Shown one piece after another: positions 12,629 to 42,840 of a DNA stretch of 64,000 nucleotides. The position numbers were made by a program, and so were the translations under genes. Every line of letters starts with the position of its first letter. Position 1 is the stretch's first letter. The DNA is from Pleurostoma richardsiae (taxonomy: Eukaryota > Ascomycota > Sordariomycetes > Calosphaeriales > Pleurostomataceae): contig JANBVO010000004.1 in the NCBI GenBank assembly GCA_030052745.1, positions 930,001-994,000 on the forward strand, given 5' to 3'. Below the pieces are notes generated by a model, which was not told the origin of the DNA, did not search any database, and saw nothing but the letters and a program-made list of their open reading frames with translations.

Positions 12629-15600
12629 TCTCCCTCAGAGGCGGACACAGAGCACACAAAGAAGAAAAAGGGCGGCGGGTGACAGGGAATCCGGTCTGGC
12701 GGTGAGGAGCTTTCGGGACTAGAGGGGAGATGGGAAACGAATAAGGAGAAGAAATAAGGTGACGGAGCCGGGCGGTCCCAAGACAGGGAATTAGCTTGCA
12801 CGCCAGCAACCGCAAATGAGAAGAAGAGAACGATGGACGAGGTACTCGTGAAGAAGGAGAAGGAGGGTAAGAATCTCGTAAAGGTGTGAGGGTGGTGGGG
12901 TGTTAAAGTAAGTAGAACCCTCCGCCCCCGACCTACAGACAGGCCATCGTAGTGAGAGGCCCAGACGGGGATCGGAGAAGGGGCCACTGGAGGACTGGAG
13001 GGACGGAGGGCGAAGGGTTGCATGGAGAGGGGCGAGGTGGACGGACGGCTTCGGCTGGGGCAGCAGTCACCACATGCCGCCAATGCTCACTGGTGCTTGG
13101 TGCCCGCTCTTCTCGCTGCCTGCCATTTCCTGTAGAGGAGTCTTCAAGCCGCCTTGGGTCGGAAGATTCCTTGCTTGCCCTCTGGGCTGCGCTGCAGGGT
13201 GTGGACCTGAGCCTGCATTAGGGCCGTCGGCTCAGATCAGCAGGCTTCTGCAGGGTGTGGGAACAGAACAGAGAGAGCGAGAGAGTACAAGATGTTTCGT
13301 ACCCCTCCAACCCTACGCCTTCGCCCGCTTCTTCCTGCCCCCTGGGCCCTGCCTCTGGTGATCCCTGGCTCCCTGGCTCCCTTGCCCGGTCGCTGGTCAT
13401 GCAGGGCGCCCGCGTACCCTCAAGTGCGCGACGACTCCGAGGGAGTACTGTACAAGTGGGCTGTGTTCAGACTTGCATATGCTGAATGACAAAACCTGCG
13501 CAGGGAACAGGCAAATGGGAGGCCCGGTTAGCCTGCGACCGCAGCTGAAAGCTGCATGTGTGGCCAGTGCAGCGCCACCGGCCTGGAAGTACCGGTACGT
13601 CCTGCCGGGTGTGGTGGCCATTAGGCTCAATCGGGGCATTAACTAAGAGCCCCCTGCTCTACTACTACTGTGGATCGCATCGCGCGCACTTCCTGTTCGC
13701 TTGACAAAAATGACACGGAGGCGGCGCTCGCTTGGAGAGCGAAGACATAGAACACAGAGAGAGAAGACAAACAAGGAATAAAGCAATCCCGAAACCAAAG
13801 ACCAGGCCAAGCGGCACGGACTCCAGCTAGGCTTTGGAGGTTCCAGAAGCGCTAGATTCCTTGCGTCTTACCGCCACAGAGCGGCATTGTAACCGCAGCA
13901 CTTGCCCGGTCCAACCACCCACCCGGGCCATTTCGGTGTCGATGTCAAAGATGCTTGAACTTGGAAACAGCATGACAACCATCAGCCTGGCGGGCGTGTT
14001 GAGCGCATCCAGGAGACTTCAAAGGAGGAAGGTTTATGAGAAGTGACAGCGTAGAGATTAACTTGCTCCTCGCGCTTCCGCCGGCTCCTCCTAGTGAGGG
14101 TCTGAGACCGGTGGCCACAATCGAGGTCTCGCGAGGGCCATATCTGAGCCCGAGGACGTAAGCTCCTGACGATCGACAATGAACACATCCGATAGGCGCC
14201 TGTGCTCAATTATATGGGCCCGTCGAGAACTATTCCGGTGCGATATCATGCAAGCTGCATCTGCATCCGCATCCGGGACTGTAGGTGTAGGTGTGCGGAC
14301 CATACAGACAGCCTCCACGGCAAACAGCTTTGTAGATTGAAGCTTGCGCTTATGCAGGTCAGAATGAAGGTTTGGGGTAGTCTCCATGAGAAGAGCGCAG
14401 TTGTAGAAAACATGGCTGCATTAATTTGCCATGGTCATATCGTCAATCATATCCTGAAATTGCTCCGCGATGGTAACTACCAGTGGCATCTCTTCTCGAA
14501 GAAGCTGAAACCAGGCGAGAGGATGGTACTAAAGGCCCCATTGTACTTACCACACCTCATTGTTGTACCAAGCCAATGCCAACCGCGTCGTGCCTTGTAG
14601 GACGCAGAGCATAACCTGTAGCTTTCAAAGGGGCAGCCACAGATGGCTGCTTAAGGCCTCACTCCTATCCTGGATGGGACGAGGTTCTCGTTCCGGAATC
14701 CAACATGAAACGGAGACAAGCGCTCAAGAAAGGCGTGTCCTGGCGTGCCAGTGGTCCAAGTGCCAGACCTGCCGATGGTGTTCAGTAGGATCGCTTCTCA
14801 ATCCTCGCAGTAGCCCGGTCCAGCTCAGCTCTGTGAACCGGACTGCGCCAAAACTGGTAGAGGATCCAAAAGAGACCTCCTGCATGTGTTGGGGATGGAG
14901 CCGGCAACTCTGGCGCACCTATCTGGTTAGTCTATCGAGCATCTGGGGCAAGACTTCAAACTCGAGGCGTCCGGAGTGGTCGGAGTGGTGCTTGTCGTCT
15001 AAGTGGGTAGAGGGAACGGGATGGAAGGGGCCGCATCGTAGAGCGGAAACTATCCCAACGGGACACCAAGATAACACCGCGGGGGGCCCGGCTCAGAGAT
15101 TCTGGATGCCCCAAGGCCATTTGGAGCAGCAGGGAAAGACAATTGTCGAGAATCAACGAGAGCCTGTAGATGGTTCCGTTCAGAGTTTCGACCCATGCTA
15201 GCGGCGGAAGGTGAGCAGAGGTGTGCGAGCGCAAAAGGGCGTCTCTGCCGTCTCATTGGGCGGTTAGCATGAGACCGAGCATTCCCCATTCTCGAGAAAA
15301 AGGCCGAAAGGAAATTGCTCATTGGCTGGAAAATCAAAAAGGAAGAAGCAGCGCCGGCTGGCGCCTCATGGGATACGTACTAAGAGGCACCTATCGTCTA
15401 GCGAAGGTATCTTCGCCCAGGCCCTCCACTTCATGTGGATGACATGACCGGGAGATACCTAGAAAGGGGGGAGAACGGTAGTGGATGATCGGATGGGTGA
15501 TGGGACGTATCAACCGAGAAGATCCCAGTGGACACTTAATCCAAAGGAGGCCCGTCATTATGAGAGCTGCAAGGCCAAGGGATGTGTAGGCGGCGTCAAG

Positions 15601-38566: not shown

Positions 38567-39391
38567 ATGCTCATCATTGGCCTCACCGGGTCCATTGCGA
38601 CCGGCAAGTCCACAGTATCAAGTCTCCTATCCTCCCCACCGCACGACCTTCCCATCATCGATGCCGACATTCTCGCCCGCCAGGTCGTCGAGCCCGGAAC
38701 CGCCGGCTACCGCGCCATAGTGTCGTACTTCGGCCCCACGACCCCGGACCTCCTCGTTCCTACCTCAGAGACCATGCCGGAGGACGGACCCCAGGGCAAG
38801 GGCCGGCCACTGAACCGCCCGGCCCTTGGCCGGCGCGTGTTCGGCGACGACCCGCAGACGCGCAAGGACCGCGCCGCGCTCAACGGCATCGTGCACCCGG
38901 CGGTGCGGCGGGAGATGTACCGGCGGCTGGCGGGCTGCTACCTGCGGGGCAGCTGGGCGGTGGTGCTGGACGTGCCACTGCTGTTCGAGAGCGGCATCGA
39001 CCGACTGTGCGGCACGGTGGCGGTGGTGGCCGTGCGGGACCCGGCTGTGCAGATGGCGCGGCTGCGGGCGCGCGACCCGCACCTGAGTGCCGAGGACGCG
39101 GAGAACAGAGTGCGCAGCCAGGGGGATGTGCGGGTCAAGGCGCGGCGGTGCGAGGCCAGAGGCCAGGGGAAGGGCGTGGTGCTGTGGAACGACGGGACCA
39201 GAGAGGAGCTGAAGGCACAGGTGGACGCGGCGATGGCGGAGATACGCAGGGCGAGCCCGGCGTGGTGGAGCTGGGCGCTGCTGCTGTGTCCGCCCCTGGG
39301 GGTCGCAGTGGGAACGTGGACGGTGTGGCAGAACTTGAGAATCAATAAGAGGTGGCAGGAGTTGGAGACGCAGGAGCGGGCGAAGCTCTGA
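38567..39391 (+). CDS. CAB5: Dephospho-CoA kinase
   Basis: A single exon of 274 residues. It catalyses the last step of coenzyme A synthesis, phosphorylating the 3'-hydroxyl of the dephospho-CoA ribose with ATP. The P-loop GLTGSIATGKST is at residues 5-16, followed by the DADILARQVVEPG segment, the RTARRR-like central part with GIVHPAVRREM, and VVLDVPLLFESGIDRL, all typical of the CoaE fold. The C-terminus extends past the fold with a hydrophobic stretch (WWSWALLLCPPLGVAVGTWT) and a charged end, a likely membrane anchor seen in many fungal homologues. The start is the first ATG and directly gives the usual MLIIGLTG N-terminus. The coding part is clearly more GC-rich than its flanks. Confidence 0.95.
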   Translation: MLIIGLTGSIATGKSTVSSLLSSPPHDLPIIDADILARQVVEPGTAGYRAIVSYFGPTTPDLLVPTSETMPEDGPQGKGRPLNRPALGRRVFGDDPQTRKDRAALNGIVHPAVRREMYRRLAGCYLRGSWAVVLDVPLLFESGIDRLCGTVAVVAVRDPAVQMARLRARDPHLSAEDAENRVRSQGDVRVKARRCEARGQGKGVVLWNDGTREELKAQVDAAMAEIRRASPAWWSWALLLCPPLGVAVGTWTVWQNLRINKRWQELETQERAKL

Positions 39392-40079: not shown

Positions 40080-42222
40080 ATGCCTCCCAACTCAGTCGTC
40101 GAGTGGATGATCGGCCAGAACATCCCGCGTCGAAAGAAGTGTCCTGCCAAGCACGATATCATCAAGATTGCCGTGTCGACGGACGATGAGTCCGGCGACG
40201 ATACGCTCTCCGTCACCTACCCGCGGCAGCCCGGCAAAGGCACAGCAGTGCGGAAGAAGTCATCGATAAAGAAGGTCCGGTTCGATGCTGCAGCAACCAA
40301 ACCAAAATCTCCCTCCTCGTCCTCAGAGGTCATATACACAGAGTCTTCACTTGAGGAATCTTCATCTATCATGGAGACCGATACATCGGAGGGTGATGCT
40401 CGGAGCAGCGATGAAGTCAGCAGCTCTGATTTCTCGGGGAGAGCCAAGAAGCCTGGGGACACAAAATCTAAGAACACGTGCAAAAAGGACGAAGTGGTCG
40501 ACAGCACAGACGAAGAATATGATGAACCACACCCAACATGCCCATGCGATGAGTGTATAGCTGGCCGGAGAAGACAGAGGAAGGCCAAGAAGGCAAAAGA
40601 GAAGAGCGCGTCCGACCGATCAGAAGGCACCGGGTCTGCTGATGATTCCAAGAAGTCGCAGAGAAAGAAACGCAAGAATTCCACAGGGAAGAAGGACAAG
40701 ACGCCGGAGACCGATAAGACGACCTCCACTGACCCGACGGAAGCCACTAAAACTGGGGAGGATACTGAGGCGGACAGCAGCGACGAGCCTCTGGCTAAGA
40801 AGAGCAAGAAGCGGGCGAAACATGGCAAGGCAGACACCAAAACCAGAGGTGAGGCGGAGCCAAAGGAAGGTGATGCGGGAGGTGATGGAGAGCAGGCCGT
40901 CGCCGCCAAAGACACCTTGTCGTCTGTGCTTCGACAGCCCAACCTTCTCATGCCAGTGAAGGCTCGAGTCCTTCAAGTCGAACACGCTGTCGAGACTCCC
41001 GATGACCCCCGACCGAATGCGTTTGTGGATGACGAACACGGCATTATTCGGGTCTATCATGGACCAGCATACGGCAACCCTACAGGAGCTCTCTACCCTC
41101 ACAGAGTGTACTCAGGCAAAGCCCCGTCTCCTGGAGTTCCTCATCCGCTGCACAACCCGTACTTCTGGGGTTTCGACCAGACTGGCTTACCGGCAAATCA
41201 CCCTAACCGGCCCTCTGAAGGGCCAGTTTACTCCGCCGGCTTTTTACATGCACCGATGCCGTACCGGATGCCTCATGCTTCGAGTCCGGCACAAGCAGAA
41301 CACTCTTTCCCCAATGCAGGTGCAGGCTTTACAGGATTAAACCCGACAACCTTCAACAACCTTCCGGCGTTGGACGAGAACCAGGTGAAAACCCCCTTCG
41401 ACACAGGCTACACTGGCTTCAACAAGGATGCCTCCGAGAAAGGCAAGCCTACAGAGACCAGCAACAACGTCGGCCCCGCGACTAGTGGCGTTGCGTCTTG
41501 GGTGGAGAAGTTCCGTGCTGTAACGAATTCGGGCAGTGGCTCGAACAAAAGCTCGGACAAGAGCAAGGGCTCGAAGAACAAGGACAAATCTAATATGGTC
41601 AATGGTGGTGGATGGGAGAATCCTGCTGGCACCAAAAGCTGGGGTGTCGACAATATGAATAACCACAGCACTGGTGACAACTGGCCTTCTGGCGGCGGGG
41701 GAGGCTGGGGTACCACATCCGCGGAAAACAAGAATGGCACCGATAAGAAGAATGGCGGATGGGGAACTAGTTGGGGCACTGAGAACGGTAAGGCTCGATC
41801 CTATGTCGTACAATATGCATTTCACTGACATTCCAACAGCTGATGGCGGTGCAGCATGGGAGGGTAACGGTTTCGGTACCTCTTCCAAACCCGCTTCTCA
41901 TCCTTCAGCTGACAAGGCCGCAGGAGGTGGCGACGGAGCAGGTGTTGGATGGAAAGCTAACGGTACGCAAATCTTATATGAACCTCGATTTAGTATCAAA
42001 GCTGATATTGTCGAAGCAAACGGAGGCGGAAAAGACAACGCTTGGAACGGCAACGGTGCGAAGACTTCCTCTAAGCTGGCATCCAATAAAGCTGACAATG
42101 TGCCAGCCGGTGGTGGAGGATGGAATGCCTCTGCTTGGAATTCCTCTCCTAAACCAGGTTCTGTCCGCGAAAGCCGCAAAGGAAGTGGTGCCAGCAACCG
42201 CGGCTCCGTGAAGGACACATAG
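40080..42222 (+). CDS. Low-complexity charged protein with GW/WG-repeat tail
   Basis: Three exons (40080-41787, 41840-41962, 42017-42222) give about 678 residues up to a TAG. Residues 1-300 are Ser/Asp/Glu/Lys-rich and probably nuclear, with a CPCDEC cluster followed by basic AGRRRQRKAKKAKE. A more ordered block of about 285-420 includes HGIIRVYHGPAYGNPTGALYPHRVY and NPYFWGFDQTGLP. From about residue 510 it becomes Gly/Asn/Ser-rich with tryptophans next to glycine (GGGWE, SWGV, GGGWGT, GGWGTSWGT, VGWKA, GGGWNA). Both introns are short (52 and 54 bases), follow AAC-G in phase 1 and end near CTGAC/CTGAT branch sites. The second is a multiple of three with no stop, so it could also be retained. 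GW/WG tracts are known as Argonaute hooks in plant, animal and fission yeast proteins; that link here is inference. I do not recognise a named homologue. Confidence 0.7.
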
Positions 42223-42840
42223 GGTGGTCCACAGGCTGCTGGCGGATGGAAAAGTGGCACTTCGGAACACGGCGGAGATCATGACTGGAATAACAACGCA
42301 CTCTCCGGCGGATGGGACGGGAACGTTGGTCACACCATGCCCGGCGCCTGGAATGGTTCTCAGTCTGCTCGGAGCAACAAGGCGGGTAGTAATCGATCCG
42401 TATCACAGCAGTATGGCGACGGCTGGGACAACAACGTTGGTGTCACTAATTGGAACGACATCCCAGACAGAGACGCCGGGCAGAACCAGGGAGCGTCTCA
42501 CAGCAATCATGGTGATGGCCGTGACAATGGAAATTGGGGCACGGGAGGCAACTCAAACTGGAGAAACAACGGTAGCCAGTGGGGAAAGGGTCCTGCCGTG
42601 ACGCCTGGAAGTCCTACTGGCGAGCGCAAGGTATCCTCCGGTTCGCACCGCAGCGCCCAAGGAGCTGGCGGCGGTAGCGGCGGGGGTAACTACAGCTGGG
42701 GCGACGACAACAACAACAACTTTGGTACCAAGGGCCCGACGTGGAAGTCGTCCTCCGGCAAGAGCAACGGCAACAACGCCGGCCCGTCCTGGGGGGACCC
42801 CAGTGCTGCCCAGAGCACGCTGGGGACCACCAACTGGTAG
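42223..42840 (+). other. In-frame continuation of the GW/WG-repeat gene beyond a TAG
   Basis: Directly after the TAG at 42220-42222 the same frame stays open for 205 codons to a TAG at 42838. It has the same composition and motif style as the upstream tail (GGWKSG, GGWDGN, DGWDNN, GNWGTGG, SQWGKG, YSWGDD, PSWGDP). No GT-AG pair that removes the stop, keeps the phase and has a plausible length was found; GTGAAG...CCACAG would be only 27 bases. Possible explanations are readthrough, a recent nonsense mutation, a sequencing error or an unusual intron such as 42208-42363. Confidence 0.6.

What the first reader, a model, noticed from the sequence alone, without database searches (positions are those of the whole stretch)
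41607..42840. GW/WG-repeat tract in an otherwise unrecognised fungal protein: candidate Argonaute hook
Seven tryptophans next to glycine occur before the TAG and seven more in the in-frame continuation, set in Gly/Asn/Ser-rich disordered sequence. Established: GW/WG tracts bind Argonaute in GW182, plant SPT5L/KTF1 and fission yeast Tas3. The rest of this protein is acidic/basic and nuclear-looking. Inference: it could be an uncharacterised RNA-silencing platform in filamentous fungi. Alternatively the tract may simply be low complexity.
Basis: partly seen in the sequence, partly recalled or inferred. Interest (0 to 1): 0.75.

Follow-up and report, generated by a model that had tools for sequence, protein, structure and literature searches.

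The report
Tryptophan-rich fungal protein with internal stop
An uncharacterised fungal gene encodes a long, probably disordered tail studded with evenly spaced tryptophans and broken by one in-frame stop codon that looks like a candidate site of messenger-RNA editing; the idea that the tail grips Argonaute proteins is only weakly supported.

Summary
W content and W spacing stand out, but W-next-to-G is close to what the Gly-rich composition gives (p 0.057). The gene is 40080-42840 with two short introns; the TAG at 42220-42222 is in frame and no plausible intron removes it. No Pfam or PDB relative was found and no fungal orthologues could be searched. The genome has three Piwi-domain genes, but these keep 1 of 12 tested tryptophan-pocket residues, against a canonical Argonaute hook. 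A better lead is the stop. The genome holds a DUF726 gene with the MV signature of Sordariomycete Ame1 and a kinase with the PUK1-type UAG-UGG site. Our UAG folds into a hairpin loop in 6 of 6 windows; 71 of 1074 window UAGs do. A-to-I editing would give Trp followed by Gly-Gly. I read the gene as a tryptophan-sticker scaffold whose last 206 residues may depend on sexual-stage mRNA editing. Editing, partner and conservation are unshown; a plain nonsense allele is the main rival.

The parts
40080..41787 (+). Exon 1: residues 1-569; acidic/basic Ser/Lys-rich N-terminal part, then a Pro/Gly/Tyr-containing middle, then the first tract W
   Evidence: translation; no Pfam at E<=1, no PDB match at E<=10; AlphaFold2 without alignment mean pLDDT 38.9, not interpretable beyond lack of a confident fold
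41788..41839 (+). Intron 1, 52 bases (inferred)
   Evidence: GTAAGG...CACTGAC...CAACAG; restores the frame; no RNA data
41840..41962 (+). Exon 2
41963..42016 (+). Intron 2, 54 bases, stop-free multiple of three (inferred)
   Evidence: GTACGC...GCTGAT...GTCGAAG; the frame, and so the TAG, is the same whether or not it is spliced
42017..42840 (+). Exon 3 with the rest of the tryptophan tract and the final stop
41580..42837 (+). Tryptophan-sticker tract, residues 501-884 (two introns inside): 24 W
   Evidence: composition and spacing statistics
42220..42222 (+). In-frame TAG, codon 679; candidate A-to-I premature-stop-correction site
   Evidence: hairpin loop in 6 of 6 windows; 0 of 11 in-frame GT..AG introns of 40-200 bases over it has a branch site or a good 5' splice site
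42212..42230 (+). Predicted RNA hairpin around the TAG (stem GGAC-CAU / GUG-GUCC, loop AGG)
   Evidence: overall fold no more stable than shuffles (z -0.28 and -0.30)
42223..42840 (+). Open frame beyond the TAG: 205 residues, 13 W, ends in TAG
   Evidence: only itself found in the genome at E<=1

Best explanation
The gene encodes a probably disordered, nuclear-looking scaffold whose C-terminal 384 positions are a tryptophan 'sticker' tract (most W 8-18 residues apart in a Gly/Asn/Ser spacer). Ordinary translation ends at the internal UAG and gives 678 residues with 11 tract W. I infer that the tRNA-type deaminase Tad2-Tad3 with its cofactor Ame1 edits that UAG to UIG, read as UGG (Trp), during sexual development, giving 884 residues with 25 tract W. 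The number of stickers would more than double in fruiting bodies, and the tract would bind aromatic pockets of RNA-regulatory partners, or itself, weakly and many at a time. Argonaute is a possible but not the favoured partner. Shown by sequence: in-frame UAG, open frame of the same composition beyond it, predicted hairpin, Ame1-like gene with MV, PUK1-type site in the same genome. Inferred: splicing, editing, nuclear location, disorder, multivalent binding.
For: The TAG lies inside a tract whose composition continues unchanged for 205 codons. UAG is a preferred fungal editing triplet and 62.4 % of edited sites are predicted in hairpin loops (PMC4817773, passages; similar in PMC9600606, passages). 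Here the A is in a hairpin loop in 6 of 6 window sizes, as are 71 of 1074 UAGs of the window. Editing would give W followed by Gly-Gly. No plausible intron removes the TAG (0 of 11 in-frame candidates). Own genome: the DUF726 family has six matches in what I read as three genes; one reads NPWSVC-MV-RADKAG upstream of GYSLG, the others RN and LD. PMC11087585 (section 17) reports MV at this site as essential for Ame1 function and KN as ancestral. A kinase exon reads YDGRCD-UAG-WSIGV with UAG UGG, as described for the edited PUK1 orthologue NCU03242, and passes the same hairpin test 6 of 6.
Against: No RNA data. With +/-30 bases alone, 308 of 1074 window UAGs and 273 of 706 As of this coding sequence fold into hairpin loops, and 377 of 1000 flank shuffles do; the whole local fold is no more stable than shuffles (62 of 200 and 79 of 200 fold as well). 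Context bases -3, -2, +4 are C, A, U, not the enriched G, U, A/G. Ame1 residues E546/R548/D589 do not discriminate: E and R recur in one other copy and D in both, and the MV lies 30, not 31, residues before the Ser. A second kinase UAG (L048) passes the hairpin test 1 of 6 times and may be decay. The DNA methylase domain matches have no stop, though FgRID is an edited gene in F. graminearum (PMC11156358, passages). Tad2/Tad3 and a sexual cycle were not checked. No orthologue shows that the UAG or the W are conserved.
Confidence: 0.42

Rival explanations
1. Plain nonsense allele or sequence error: the TAG is a recent mutation (or assembly error); the protein simply ends after 678 residues in this strain and the downstream frame has not yet decayed.
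For: One stop in 884 codons is what a recent mutation looks like; loss of half of a repetitive, probably disordered tail may be tolerated; 11 tract W remain. About 1 UAG in 15 has the same hairpin score by chance.
Against: Of the three stops only UAG can be edited to a sense codon, and it falls next to Gly-Gly and in a stable-looking loop in a genome with the PUK1-type site.
Confidence: 0.33
2. Argonaute hook: the tract docks on the PIWI domain of the QDE-2-type Argonaute and makes the protein a silencing platform.
For: W spacing fits (14 of 22 gaps 8-18; human TNRC6 sites hold two W ten or more residues apart, PMC9262622, passages). Three Piwi-domain and two Dicer-dimer matches in the genome. 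Fungal precedent: Cryptococcus Ago1 forms a complex with Gwo1 (PMC6643885, passages).
Against: 1 of 12 pocket residues kept (P,C,A,G / K,N,L,Y / K,Q,L,Y at the hAGO2 P590, F659, K660, E695 equivalents); Neurospora QDE-2 read by eye also lacks them. W-G contacts not clearly above composition. PMC12477606 finds fungal pockets variable (passages). Pocket 3 and fission yeast Ago1, which binds Tas3, were not examined.
Confidence: 0.13
3. Deadenylase adaptor: the W tract docks on the tryptophan pockets of NOT9/CAF40 or PAN3 and recruits mRNA decay without Argonaute.
For: The genome has a NOT9 gene whose matched exon is 100 of 128 residues identical to human CNOT9 and a PAN3. CNOT9 W pockets bind GW182 and TTP (PMC10590902, passages), and many pocket residues are reported invariant in eukaryotes (PMC12819147, passages).
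Against: No pocket residue was compared one by one; NOT9 is conserved anyway. The protein looks nuclear and has no recognised RNA-binding domain.
Confidence: 0.13
4. Low-complexity filler: the tract has no specific partner and W are tolerated passengers of a Gly-rich sequence; or an overlooked intron removes the TAG.
For: Adjacency p 0.057; 11 in-frame GT..AG pairs span the TAG.
Against: W is 6 % while F+Y are 1 %, with regular spacing, which drift of a Gly-rich tract would not favour; 0 of the 11 introns has a branch site or a good 5' site.
Confidence: 0.2

Closest known systems
Premature-stop-correction (PSC) genes of Sordariomycetes such as PUK1, AMD1, CHE1 (A-to-I, UAG to UGG)
   Same: In-frame UAG in an otherwise open coding region; A in a predicted hairpin loop; genome with an MV-type Ame1-like gene and the PUK1-type site
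   Different: Editing not observed; the site lies in a low-complexity tract, where it would add a tryptophan to a tryptophan tract. Most of the characterised cases I saw described are in genes with named domains (kinase, MFS, zinc finger)
GW/WG Argonaute-binding platforms: animal GW182/TNRC6, plant NRPE1 and SPT5L, fission yeast Tas3
   Same: Gly/Asn/Ser-rich tract with W mostly 8-18 residues apart
   Different: No Pfam domain at all, no Ago_hook match, and the genome's Argonautes lack most tested W-pocket residues
Cryptococcus Gwo1
   Same: Fungal; GW-rich by recall; in a complex with Ago1 (PMC6643885, passages)
   Different: Basidiomycete P-body protein; no sequence comparison made
Other W-rich disordered adaptors of CCR4-NOT (TTP, Puf3 tail)
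   Same: Aromatic short motifs in disordered sequence
   Different: No RNA-binding domain recognised here; binding untested

Membership tests
GW/WG Argonaute-hook proteins | Several W in Gly/Ser/Asn-rich sequence, spaced about ten or more residues | tested here: met
   24 W in 383 residues; 14 of 22 gaps 8-18
GW/WG Argonaute-hook proteins | W next to G beyond composition | tested here: inconclusive
   14 observed, 9.7 +/- 2.4 expected, p 0.057
GW/WG Argonaute-hook proteins | Argonaute in the same genome | tested here: met
   three Piwi matches above cut-off
GW/WG Argonaute-hook proteins | W-pocket residues (pockets 1 and 2) kept on that Argonaute | tested here: not met
   1 of 12. Residues from ALG-1 K803, E838, P733, F802 (PMC5147811, passages), mapped to hAGO2 by recall and checked by eye on the alignment; pocket 3 not tested
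GW/WG Argonaute-hook proteins | Match to Pfam Ago_hook | tested here: inconclusive
   none at E<=1; no control genome rang; exon 2 was not scanned on its own
GW/WG Argonaute-hook proteins | Physical binding to Argonaute, W conserved in orthologues | not testable with these tools
   no fungal collection held; one viral-contig scan found nothing
A-to-I premature-stop-correction genes | In-frame UAG, open frame beyond, no intron that removes it | tested here: met
A-to-I premature-stop-correction genes | A in a hairpin loop, U at -1 | tested here: met
   6 of 6 windows; background 71 of 1074. U at -1 is inherent in UAG
A-to-I premature-stop-correction genes | Editing machinery: Tad2-Tad3 and MV-type Ame1 | tested here: inconclusive
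   MV-type DUF726 gene found; Tad2 and Tad3 not searched
A-to-I premature-stop-correction genes | A/G mixture in sexual-stage RNA | not testable with these tools
   no RNA data
A-to-I premature-stop-correction genes | UAG kept in related species | not testable with these tools
   no orthologue available

The most novel reading that the evidence does not exclude
A developmental valence switch: mRNA editing in fruiting bodies reads one stop codon as tryptophan and so adds a second tryptophan-sticker block (11 to 25 tract W) to a nuclear scaffold, changing how many RNA-silencing or RNA-decay partners it can hold during sexual development. The recoded residue would itself be one of the stickers.
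Probability: 0.27. Interest if true: 0.75.

Novelty: new member of a known kind. Interest (0 to 1): 0.45.

Why it matters
If the UAG is edited, it would be a case in which RNA editing controls the length and sticker number of a low-complexity tract, linking two fields (fungal A-to-I editing and multivalent tryptophan scaffolds) and testable with existing fruiting-body RNA-seq. If the tract does bind Argonaute, it would show that fungal Argonautes without the animal pocket residues can still use GW proteins, a point that a recent survey leaves open (PMC12477606, passages). If the TAG is only a nonsense allele, the gene is an ordinary uncharacterised low-complexity protein.

Tried and rejected
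Tried without result: Pfam on three pieces of the protein and two neighbours (the gene's pieces gave 0 families at E<=1); PDB by sequence with exon 1 and with the part after the TAG (0 at E<=10); viral contigs for relatives (0); own genome for paralogues of exon 1 and of the tail (only the gene itself, at E<=0.001 and E<=1); Rfam on the window (0 at gathering scores); AlphaFold2 on P0001 without an alignment (mean pLDDT 38.9, useless for a fold). The prokaryote, phage, plasmid and E. coli collections were not searched with this gene, because a fungal nuclear gene is not expected there; metagenome scans are capped at 0.

Rejected: a hidden intron over the TAG (41 GT..AG pairs of 40-200 bases, 11 in frame, 0 of these with a branch site or good 5' site); a tandem DNA repeat. 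Stop-codon read-through by the ribosome was considered and not pursued; no tool tests it.

Kinases as a check for other edited stops: one search lists 141 Pkinase matches, 10 of which report an internal TAG; I looked at these 10 by eye. In 8 the TAG stands at the edge of a match or in a stretch that reads like an intron; 2 are in continuous kinase sequence (L050, PUK1-type; L048, ambiguous).

Literature: searches for a fungal GW/Argonaute protein like this one listed none; these cover open-licence PubMed Central only.

Full report
What is there. The finding lies in a gene on the + strand, between a dephospho-CoA kinase (38567-39391, CoaE E 5e-39) and an eIF5 gene on the other strand (about 45217-44153, Pfam eIF-5_eIF-2B E 2.5e-38). 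My model has three exons, 40080-41787, 41840-41962 and 42017-42840, with introns of 52 and 54 bases. It gives 884 codons and one in-frame TAG at codon 679, 42220-42222.

Is it more than chance. Given the composition, W-G contacts are 14 against 9.7 +/- 2.4 (p 0.057), so the 'GW motif' is not itself strongly supported. What stands out is W as almost the only large hydrophobic residue type at 6 % (F+Y 4 of 383; W 0.6 % in residues 1-500) and regular spacing: 14 of 22 gaps of 8-18 residues (p 0.004, range chosen after looking), none below 4 (p 0.010), CV p 0.016. The contacts occur only in the coding frame of exon 3 (8 against 0-1 in the other five), Gly codons are mixed, and there is no DNA tandem repeat to speak of. 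This looks like selection on protein, a sticker-and-spacer tract. Within the window one other place, near + 14500, has open 100-residue stretches with 4 or more such contacts; not followed up.

No relatives. Pfam 0 at E<=1 for the three pieces scanned, PDB 0 at E<=10 for two pieces, viral contigs 0, and in the own genome only the gene itself. AlphaFold2 without an alignment gave mean pLDDT 38.9, which fits disorder but proves nothing. Short motifs seen by eye (KKVRF at residue 64, like a PP1-docking RVxF by recall; CPCDEC at 154) were not tested.

Argonaute hook. RNAi genes are present: three Piwi matches, two Dicer-dimer matches; two of the Piwi domains are closest to Neurospora QDE-2 among PDB chains and the third to animal Argonautes. 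At the positions that hold tryptophan in ALG-1 and hAGO2 (PMC5147811, passages; hAGO2 numbering recalled and checked by eye on the alignment) the three read P,C,A,G; K,N,L,Y; K,Q,L,Y: 1 of 12 kept. QDE-2 read by eye lacks them as well. A survey of Argonautes reaches the same view for fungi but finds pocket TRP3 distinctly conserved there (PMC12477606, passages); I did not test pocket 3. So a canonical pocket-1/2 hook is unlikely; another mode of binding is not excluded. Fungal precedent exists in Cryptococcus, where Ago1 is in a complex with Gwo1 (PMC6643885, passages).

The stop. The TAG cannot be spliced out plausibly: 41 GT..AG pairs of 40-200 bases span it, 11 keep the frame, and 0 of these has a branch site or a good 5' site. 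In Sordariomycetes, UAG codons inside genes can be edited to UGG during sexual development (PMC4817773, passages; PMC11156358, passages; CHE1 in hyphae, PMC11169179, first of five parts). Two features of this genome fit. First, PF05277/DUF726 has six matches in what I read as three genes; one reads MV where Ame1 has the MV reported as essential and Sordariomycete-specific (PMC11087585, section 17), the others RN and LD. The residues corresponding to E546 and R548 are also in the RN copy and D589 in all three, so only MV discriminates; it lies one residue closer to the Ser than the published numbers imply. Second, a kinase exon has UAG UGG in YDGRCD-stop-WSIGV, as described for the edited PUK1 orthologue NCU03242.

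The site itself. The A of our UAG is in a hairpin loop of the minimum-energy fold in 6 of 6 window sizes, as it is for 71 of 1074 UAGs of the window, and with sampled probability 0.87-1.0. The PUK1-type site also scores 6 of 6, the ambiguous L048 kinase 1 of 6. Results against: with +/-30 bases alone 308 of 1074 window UAGs, 273 of 706 As of this coding sequence and 377 of 1000 flank shuffles score as hairpin; the local fold is no more stable than shuffles (z -0.28, -0.30); bases -3, -2 and +4 are not the enriched ones; the DNA methylase matches carry no stop. An edited codon would read Trp followed by Gly-Gly, in the style of the tract.

How it may work. Best reading: a nuclear-looking scaffold with a short form (678 residues, 11 tract W) and, in sexual tissue, an edited long form (884 residues, 25 tract W), acting by many weak tryptophan contacts. 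Candidate partners with known tryptophan pockets and present in the genome are NOT9 (matched exon 100 of 128 identical to human CNOT9) and PAN3; pockets of NOT9 are reported widely conserved (PMC12819147, passages). None of this binding is shown. The chief rival is a plain nonsense allele or sequence error with a still undecayed tail.

Verdict. Observation confirmed; the Argonaute interpretation partly supported at best; the internal UAG is the better lead, at 0.42 for the editing reading. As a kind, PSC genes and W-rich tracts are known; the combination is what would be new.

Noticed in passing
L050 (G000:C1:1791200-1793600, - strand), reverse-complement 1451-1453: Kinase exon with in-frame UAG UGG in YDGRCD-stop-WSIGV, matching the description of the conserved PUK1/NCU03242 editing site; hairpin loop in 6 of 6 windows.
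   Followed up: partly
L008 (G000:C2:677852-678385, -): DUF726 gene with the MV signature of Sordariomycete Ame1; the upstream match of the same gene (L011) reports one internal TAG, not examined for intron or editing.
   Followed up: partly
L048 (G000:C60:327449-328003), TAG at locus 1618: Kinase-like sequence RSPES-stop-ARARQ with a UAG in continuous kinase homology; hairpin 1 of 6; could be a decayed gene.
   Followed up: partly
L002, L003, L004: Three Piwi-domain genes; one (L003) lies on a 17-kb contig near its end; all keep the two catalytic Asp checked but lack most animal W-pocket residues.
   Followed up: partly
window, near 14500 +: A second open stretch with 4 or more W-G contacts in 100 residues.
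   Followed up: no
window 41963-42016: Intron 2 is 54 bases, a stop-free multiple of three, so its retention would keep the frame; both introns start right after an Asn-Gly-like repeat position.
   Followed up: no
window 40269-40283 and 40539-40556 (residues 64-68 and 154-159): KKVRF, resembling a PP1-docking RVxF motif (recalled), and a cysteine cluster CPCDEC in the N-terminal part.
   Followed up: no
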